DNA of 64,000 nt from Deltaproteobacteria bacterium (lineage in GTDB: Bacteria; Myxococcota_A; UBA9160; UBA4427): the NCBI GenBank assembly GCA_002719955.1, contig PBFW01000019.1:1-64000 (forward strand). The letters are read 5' to 3'. This document shows positions 2,183 to 2,734 of this stretch, piece after piece (position 1 is the stretch's first letter; each line of letters opens with the position of its first letter). The notes below the pieces were generated by a model. The model was not told the origin of the DNA, did no database searches, and saw nothing but the letters and a program-made list of their open reading frames with translations. A program made the translations under genes and the position numbers.

Positions 2183-2734
2183 TCAGCGATCGCCTGCGGT
2201 GGCGCAGAGCTGGTCGATGATCACGTCGATCATCGGAGTCAACTTCGCGGCGACGGCCTCGTCCGAACGATCGAGATAGTCCGAAGGCACGATCACGAGT
2301 GGCAGCGCACCCATGCCGTAGAGCCGGGCATGAGTGCGCGCGGCTTGTTCGAAGGGCTCGGTCACGAAGGTTAGACTGGGGGTGCCCTGCTGCTCGAGAT
2401 GAACTGCGTCGAGCAAACTGCCCGACGTGCAGGAGCCTCATTTAGCGAGGCCGTTGATCACTCCGTCGTAGCCACTGAATCGTTCGATCATGTCGGCGTC
2501 CGCGGGCCGAGAAAGAACCGGCTTGATTTCGAGATGGAAATCCCGGACACCCAGACGGTCGTGCAAGGCGCGCTCGAGAACGCGTGTGTAGCCCGGGAAG
2601 TGTGGGCCCGTGAGGTGCTCCTGCTCGTTGCTCAAGAAACCGATTCTTCGAATTTCTCGGGGGTCGCGTACCCTGGGTGCGAGCTGCGCGATATCGGAAT
2701 CGTCGTGCCCTCTCGGGTCAATGAGTTCGATCAT
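2183..2734 (-). CDS. UGSC family selenoprotein (in-frame TGA at 2438..2440 read as Sec), ~183 aa
   Basis: Two same-frame minus ORF pieces joined by one TGA: MIELIDPRGHDDSD...GYDGVINGLAK-(TGA)-GSCTSGSLLDAVHLEQQGTPSLTFVTEPFEQAARTHARLYGMGALPLVIVPSDYLDRSDEAVAAKLTPMIDVIIDQLCATAGDR*. SECIS-like hairpin directly downstream. Confidence 0.85.
2404..2432 (-). promoter_or_regulatory. Putative bacterial SECIS element
   Basis: RNA 3' of UGA: CUG-CA(bulge)-CGUCGGGCA-GUU-UGCUCGACG-CAG; 9 contiguous bp (one G-U) plus 3 bp below a 2-nt bulge; GUU apical loop 20-22 nt downstream of the U of UGA. Confidence 0.75.

What the first reader, a model, noticed from the sequence alone, without database searches (positions are those of the whole stretch)
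2183..2734. Selenoprotein gene of the UGSC type, split by ORF callers at an in-frame UGA
Seen directly: on the minus strand ORF pieces 2438..3346 (C-terminal part) and 2183..2416 are in the same frame and separated by one TGA (2438..2440). Read through, the junction is ...GVINGLAK-U-GSCTSGSLL.... U-G-S-C is the motif that gives the UGSC (seleno)protein family its name, with Sec/Cys forming a candidate redox or metal site. Readthrough gives one ~183-aa protein of even quality on both sides.
Basis: partly seen in the sequence, partly recalled or inferred. Interest (0 to 1): 0.9.

Follow-up and report, generated by a model that had tools for sequence, protein, structure and literature searches.

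The report
UGSC selenoprotein and its partner gene
The in-frame stop codon is real selenocysteine recoding in a member of a known but functionally uncharacterised selenoprotein family, and the gene is one half of a conserved two-protein unit whose other half belongs to no named protein family.

Summary
Minus-strand 2734..2183 is one 183-aa reading frame with a single in-frame TGA (2440..2438) in K-U-G-S-C. It is a member of Pfam PF24696 (UGSC; 100.9 bits, cut-off 25).

Sec decoding is well supported:
- The genome carries selA, selB, selD and tRNA-Sec(UCA).
- All seven intact UGSC genes in the genome, and 96 of 99 listed matches in 61 genomes, have exactly one TGA.
- 120 of 120 full-length database relatives have Cys at that column.
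- A 3' stem-loop (bacterial SECIS) covaries at silent positions across 102 genes.
- Tested hosts agree: Blastococcus has UAG with tRNA-Sec(CUA); Natrialba and Novosphingobium have Cys and no tRNA-Sec.

New relative to the libraries and papers searched: the gene overlaps (ATGA) an upstream gene (3900..2731) of a family without a Pfam or NCBIfam model. In named genomes 71 of 80 UGSC genes lie within 300 bp of this partner; 20 pairs are fused. In a large subfamily the partner carries a thioredoxin-like CPTC domain. The predicted UGSC fold is Rossmann-like, not the thioredoxin-like fold suggested in print.

Best explanation (inferred): the Sec subunit of a two-component, thiol-driven reductase. 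Substrate unknown.

The parts
2183..2734 (-). UGSC-family selenoprotein gene, 183 aa, one in-frame TGA; stop TGA 2185..2183
   Evidence: PF24696 100.9 bits; NF041046 77.3 bits, below its cut-off of 125
2438..2440 (-). UGA codon for selenocysteine (Sec99) of the U-G-S-C motif
   Evidence: column is Sec (TGA, once TAG) or Cys in every homologue inspected except one fused, motif-less offshoot
2408..2426 (-). bacterial SECIS stem-loop GTCGGGCA-GTT-TGCTCGAC, 14 nt after the first base of the UGA
   Evidence: z -4.15, 0 of 200 shuffles as stable; covariation and synonymous-recoding null across 102 genes
2731..3900 (-). partner gene, 389 aa, of a family without Pfam or NCBIfam model; ATG 3900 chosen, an earlier TTG at 3984 is possible
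2731..2734 (-). ATGA overlap: start codon of UGSC and stop codon of the partner, suggesting translational coupling
   Evidence: direct reading of the sequence

Best explanation
The locus encodes a two-subunit enzyme. The 183-aa UGSC protein carries selenocysteine, inserted at UGA 2440..2438 by SelB and tRNA-Sec(UCA) with the help of the SECIS stem at 2426..2408 (strong sequence evidence; not shown in vivo). Sec99 sits at the start of a helix after the third strand of a Rossmann-like domain, three residues before Cys102 (structure prediction). The 389-aa partner is made from the same mRNA and binds UGSC in a complex (inferred from near-obligate adjacency, the ATGA overlap and natural fusions). 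During turnover the selenolate attacks or reduces a small substrate, a Sec-Cys selenylsulfide forms across U-G-S-C, and a thioredoxin-type dithiol resets it (inferred; in a sister subfamily such a dithiol is fused to the partner as a CPTC domain). The substrate is probably a small organic catabolite (weak inference from neighbouring TctC receptors and amidohydrolases). The stated confidence is for this whole enzyme model; confidence that the TGA encodes Sec is about 0.97.
For: PF24696 membership. selA, selB, selD, tRNA-Sec(UCA) in the genome. Seven intact UGSC genes in the genome, each with one TGA; 96 of 99 listed matches in 61 genomes with exactly one TGA. Invariant U/C99, G100, C102 in 43 diverse members; Cys in 120/120 full-length relatives. 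SECIS pairing 7.27 of 8 against 4.70 +/- 0.14 in a synonymous null, with silent covariation. Codon-tRNA match in four tested hosts. UGSC-selB co-occurrence p=0.002. Pairing 71 of 80 within 300 bp, 20 fusions and 21 fused CxxC domains. Rossmann-like model, pLDDT 88.
Against: No homologue of UGSC or partner with a known reaction was found. The thioredoxin-like domain scores weakly in Pfam (E 0.08) and is absent from the window's own partner. Poribacterial partners have no adjacent UGSC, so the partner can perhaps act alone. Nine of 80 UGSC genes lie farther than 300 bp from a partner, and the loci were found through the partner, which favours pairs. Neighbouring genes are not conserved. The genome is a draft with 8.6% contamination.
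Confidence: 0.5

Rival explanations
1. The gene is a true selenoprotein, but UGSC is a general thiol-disulfide oxidoreductase or antioxidant (thioredoxin-like), as suggested in the literature, and the partner is the protein it keeps reduced.
For: U-x-x-C motif; published surveys list UGSC among Trx-like selenoproteins (PMC2398784, PMC13188914). The partner has well-conserved Cys87 and Cys186.
Against: The predicted fold is a five-stranded parallel a/b domain, and no thioredoxin is among the listed PDB matches. Several diverged pairs per genome suit substrate-specific enzymes better than housekeeping redox proteins. A thioredoxin-like domain is already fused to some partners. One own-genome partner (L031) lacks Cys87 and keeps UGSC.
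Confidence: 0.25
2. UGSC is a distant relative and functional analogue of the GrdB/PrdB selenoproteins of glycine and proline reductases: the selenolate attacks a carbon next to a leaving group and the product is released by thiol reduction.
For: Motif resemblance to PF07355-like selenoproteins of the same genus and phylum: PVUPNCTRAVGAASHYLESEGVPTTG against LAKUGSCTSGSLLDAVHLEQQGTPSLT. Two-subunit make-up with thioredoxin as donor is similar in outline (established knowledge of GrdB/PrdB).
Against: Profile-profile comparison finds no homology (hhalign probability 0.6%), though the PF07355-like alignment was shallow (8 sequences). No UGSC member matches PF07355, and no partner matches a reductase subunit.
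Confidence: 0.15
3. The TGA is a sequencing error or marks a pseudogene, and no Sec is made.
For: One further UGSC copy in the genome (contig C28) is visibly broken, with 2 TGA and 1 TAG.
Against: Orthologues at about 71-76% identity in other genomes have the same TGA and motif; the SECIS stem is intact; the frame is conserved on both sides.
Confidence: 0.01

Closest known systems
UGSC family (seleno)protein, Pfam PF24696 / NCBIfam NF041046 (example ABI76733.1 in PMC13188914)
   Same: Same family by profile over the whole length, same U-G-S-C motif, Sec or Cys at the same column, SECIS downstream.
   Different: Divergent subfamily (NF041046 score 77 against a cut-off of 125; NGLAKUGSCTSG type, about 25-30% identical to most members). 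The published Trx-like fold is not supported by the model.
UAG-coded UGSC proteins of Geodermatophilaceae (Mukai et al. 2016, as cited in PMC5330540)
   Same: Same family, same column, SECIS kept (Blastococcus L121).
   Different: The window uses the standard UGA and tRNA-Sec(UCA).
GrdB/PrdB selenoproteins (PF07355)
   Same: U-x-x-C-T before a helix and LE..G.P after it; in outline a multi-subunit reductase with thioredoxin as donor.
   Different: No detectable sequence or profile homology; different length and partner.
UGSC / 'Unknown_1' fusion of the GOS survey (PMC2398784)
   Same: A UGSC domain fused to another conserved domain of unknown function, possibly the partner described here.
   Different: The supplement with the alignment could not be read, so identity is unproven. 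The survey called Unknown_1 limited to a few aquatic organisms; the partner here is widespread.

Membership tests
UGSC family (PF24696) | Profile match above the gathering score | tested here: met
   100.9 bits against 25, positions 1-171 of 172
UGSC family (PF24696) | U/C-G-x-C motif with Sec or Cys at the first position | tested here: met
   TGA at residue 99 followed by GSC; column invariant for U/C in 43 members and Cys in 120 of 120 database relatives
UGSC family (NF041046 equivalog) | Score above the curated cut-off of 125 bits | tested here: not met
   77.3 bits; it is a divergent member of the Pfam family, not of NCBI's equivalog
Bacterial selenoprotein | Sec machinery in the host (selA, selB, selD, tRNA-Sec UCA) | tested here: met
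Bacterial selenoprotein | SECIS stem-loop directly 3' of the UGA | tested here: met
   stem 2426..2408, z -4.15; covariation across 102 genes
Bacterial selenoprotein | Sec found in the protein | not testable with these tools
   needs 75Se labelling or mass spectrometry
Thioredoxin-like fold | Thioredoxin topology with U/CxxC at the start of the first helix | tested here: not met
   model is a five-strand parallel a/b domain with Sec after strand 3; no thioredoxin among the listed PDB matches. Prediction only
GrdB/PrdB (PF07355) | Sequence or profile homology | tested here: not met
   hhalign probability 0.6% against a shallow PF07355-like alignment of 8 sequences; no Pfam match in 43 members

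The most novel reading that the evidence does not exclude
UGSC plus its partner form a widespread, undescribed class of selenium-dependent two-component catabolic reductase, with a Rossmann-like Sec subunit, a substrate subunit of a family that no library names, and in some lineages a thioredoxin-like domain as built-in electron donor, present as several specialised pairs per genome across many bacterial phyla and in a Cys form in a haloarchaeon.
Probability: 0.35. Interest if true: 0.75.

Novelty: new member of a known kind. Interest (0 to 1): 0.42.

Why it matters
UGSC proteins are among the commonest selenoproteins in aquatic metagenomes (PMC2398784), and no paper found in the searched library assigns them a function. 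A near-obligate partner, natural fusions and a fused thioredoxin-like domain say which proteins to express together and which electron donor to try, and so make the function testable. The Trx-fold statement in the literature would also need revision if the predicted fold holds.

Tried and rejected
1) Homology of UGSC to GrdB/PrdB: motif resemblance only, hhalign negative.
2) Identifying the partner by PDB sequence (best E 0.1) and by fold (class I fumarases, Toblerone cyclic amide hydrolases and CyuA, but TM scores near 0.2): no confident relative.
3) Window-specific gene context: the FMN oxidoreductase, VOC, amidohydrolase and amidase genes beside the window pair are not beside its orthologues, so no substrate can be read from them.
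5) First-pass neighbour clustering was spoiled by antisense ORFs in GC-rich DNA; replaced by a Pfam scan of adjoining same-strand ORFs.
6) Sequencing error or pseudogene: rejected.

Full report
What is there. On the minus strand, ATG 2734 opens a frame that ends at TGA 2185..2183 and holds one internal TGA at 2440..2438. The product, 183 aa, matches Pfam PF24696 (UGSC family) over nearly the whole profile at 100.9 bits. It also matches NCBIfam NF041046 at 77.3 bits, below that model's cut-off of 125, so it is a divergent member. The finding's coordinates and junction are right.

Host machinery. The window lies in a 5.85-Mb draft genome (94% complete, 8.6% contamination). It holds selB (304.7 bits, cut-off 242), selA (525.5, cut-off 268), selD (262.3, cut-off 125) and a tRNA-Sec with TCA anticodon. 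The same genome has seven intact UGSC genes, each with exactly one TGA, and one broken copy. In 61 genomes (the own genome and 60 relatives) 49 have UGSC. Of the 99 listed matches, 96 have exactly one TGA, two on one contig of G008 have none (the one read out has Cys), and one is the broken copy. UGSC and selB occur together: 45 genomes have both, 4 UGSC only, 6 selB only, 6 neither, p=0.002, not corrected for relatedness. The four UGSC-only cases may reflect incompleteness or my strict selB threshold.

The codon column. In 43 UGSC proteins from many phyla, columns 99 (Sec/Cys), 100 (Gly) and 102 (Cys) are invariant. All 120 best full-length database relatives have Cys there, none Ser, Thr or anything else; Sec forms are cut at the UGA in such databases and so are missing from that count. 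Four hosts were tested for the fit between codon and tRNA. Blastococcus has TAG with an intact stem, and its tRNA-Sec-like gene (66.7 bits) reads CTA. Bacillus piscicola has TGA and tRNA-Sec(TCA). Natrialba and Novosphingobium have Cys codons, and their best tRNA-Sec hits are tRNA-Ser. UAG-coded UGSC proteins of Geodermatophilaceae were already known (PMC5330540), so this is corroboration, not discovery.

SECIS. In the window the stem GTCGGGCA-GTT-TGCTCGAC runs from 2426 to 2408; the 26-nt segment around it folds better than all 200 shuffles, z -4.15, while the longer 41-nt segment is less remarkable, z -1.78. In 102 distinct Sec genes an average of 7.27 of the eight pairs form. Random synonymous recoding that keeps every amino acid gives 4.70 +/- 0.14 (1000 trials, maximum 5.09), and slid controls give 1.4 to 4.1. 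The key pair joins two third codon positions: 50 genes have C-G and 48 have G-C. Among Val codons, where that base is silent, the counts are 37:0:1:29, p=4e-18. Related sequences inflate that p-value, but both states recur in several phyla. The Natrialba and Novosphingobium Cys forms show no excess fold, although Natrialba keeps part of the stem.

The partner. The gene upstream ends in the same ATGA in which UGSC begins. Its product, 389 aa, matches no Pfam or NCBIfam model, nor does any of 64 relatives at a meaningful score; the 655 database relatives found are unnamed or 'hypothetical' where listed. In the own genome, partner paralogues lie next to the UGSC genes on C7, C17, C20, C24, C39 (twice) and C19, the window. 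In 80 loci of named genomes found by the partner alone, 66 hold UGSC, and 71 of 80 UGSC genes lie within 300 bp of a partner on the same strand, in either order. In 20 cases the two share one frame with no stop but the Sec TGA, that is, they are fused. In 21 distinct partners an N-terminal segment with CPTC or CDTC and, in the two own-genome seeds, a VPT element is fused in frame. It looks thioredoxin-like, though Pfam scores it weakly (E 0.08). The tree of 116 partners puts the window copy with its order's orthologues and next to Acidimicrobiia, apart from the other own paralogues, so the paralogues are old or have been exchanged between phyla.

Fold. The UGSC model (pLDDT 88, pTM 0.84) is a five-stranded a/b domain; Sec99 lies at the start of the helix after strand 3. 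PDB matches are weak (best E 5e-4, TM about 0.5 or less) and mostly of a/b flavodoxin or Rossmann type, with no thioredoxin among those listed. Published surveys call the family Trx-like (PMC2398784, PMC13188914); the prediction disagrees. The partner model (pLDDT 92) has no confident relative.

Context. Of 118 adjoining same-strand ORFs, 15 are TctC receptors, 5 amidohydrolases and 3-4 SelB-type factors. The window pair has its own catabolic neighbours, but they are not beside its orthologues. Only the pair is conserved.

How it most likely works. Shown by sequence: Sec decoding signal, machinery, invariant U-G-x-C, near-obligate pairing, fusions. Inferred: a complex of UGSC and partner, a selenylsulfide cycle across U99/C102, thioredoxin-type re-reduction, a small organic substrate. 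The substrate and the partner's chemistry remain unknown.

Compared with what is known. The gene is a new, divergent member of a known selenoprotein family. The pairing with a specific unnamed family, the many fusions and the thioredoxin-like fusions were not found in the papers searched, apart from a 2008 note of a UGSC fusion with an 'Unknown_1' domain that may be the same thing and could not be checked here.

Noticed in passing
L016 (G000:C28:16826-17242): Broken UGSC copy with 2 TGA and 1 TAG, close in sequence to the intact copy on C39 (L012); a pseudogene or an assembly remnant of a second strain.
   Followed up: no
L121:5708-5710 and L147: Blastococcus sp. CT_GayMR19 has TAG at the Sec column with a perfect SECIS, and a tRNA-Sec-like gene with CUA anticodon; this type of recoding is already published.
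   Followed up: yes
L145, L166-L168, L170, L171, L173, L181: PrdB/GrdB-like selenoprotein genes (PVUPNCTR or PVUPLCTR) in genomes of the same genus, order and class, with no PF07355 match in the window's own genome at the threshold used.
   Followed up: partly
L088, L094, L096, L115, L125, L126, L136: Poribacterial partner-family genes with no UGSC gene in the fetched flanks.
   Followed up: no
L073:4032-4481: A UGSC-like domain fused to a partner that has lost the Sec/Cys motif (TGEGGNPTAKTARD), possibly a non-redox offshoot.
   Followed up: no
window 10320..13034 (-): A 904-aa protein with two class III CoA-transferase domains in one chain.
   Followed up: no
window 16324..53949: Catabolic region: flavin monooxygenase-like, luciferase-like monooxygenase, PQQ dehydrogenase, two cytochromes P450, two amidohydrolases and an acyl-CoA dehydrogenase.
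   Followed up: partly
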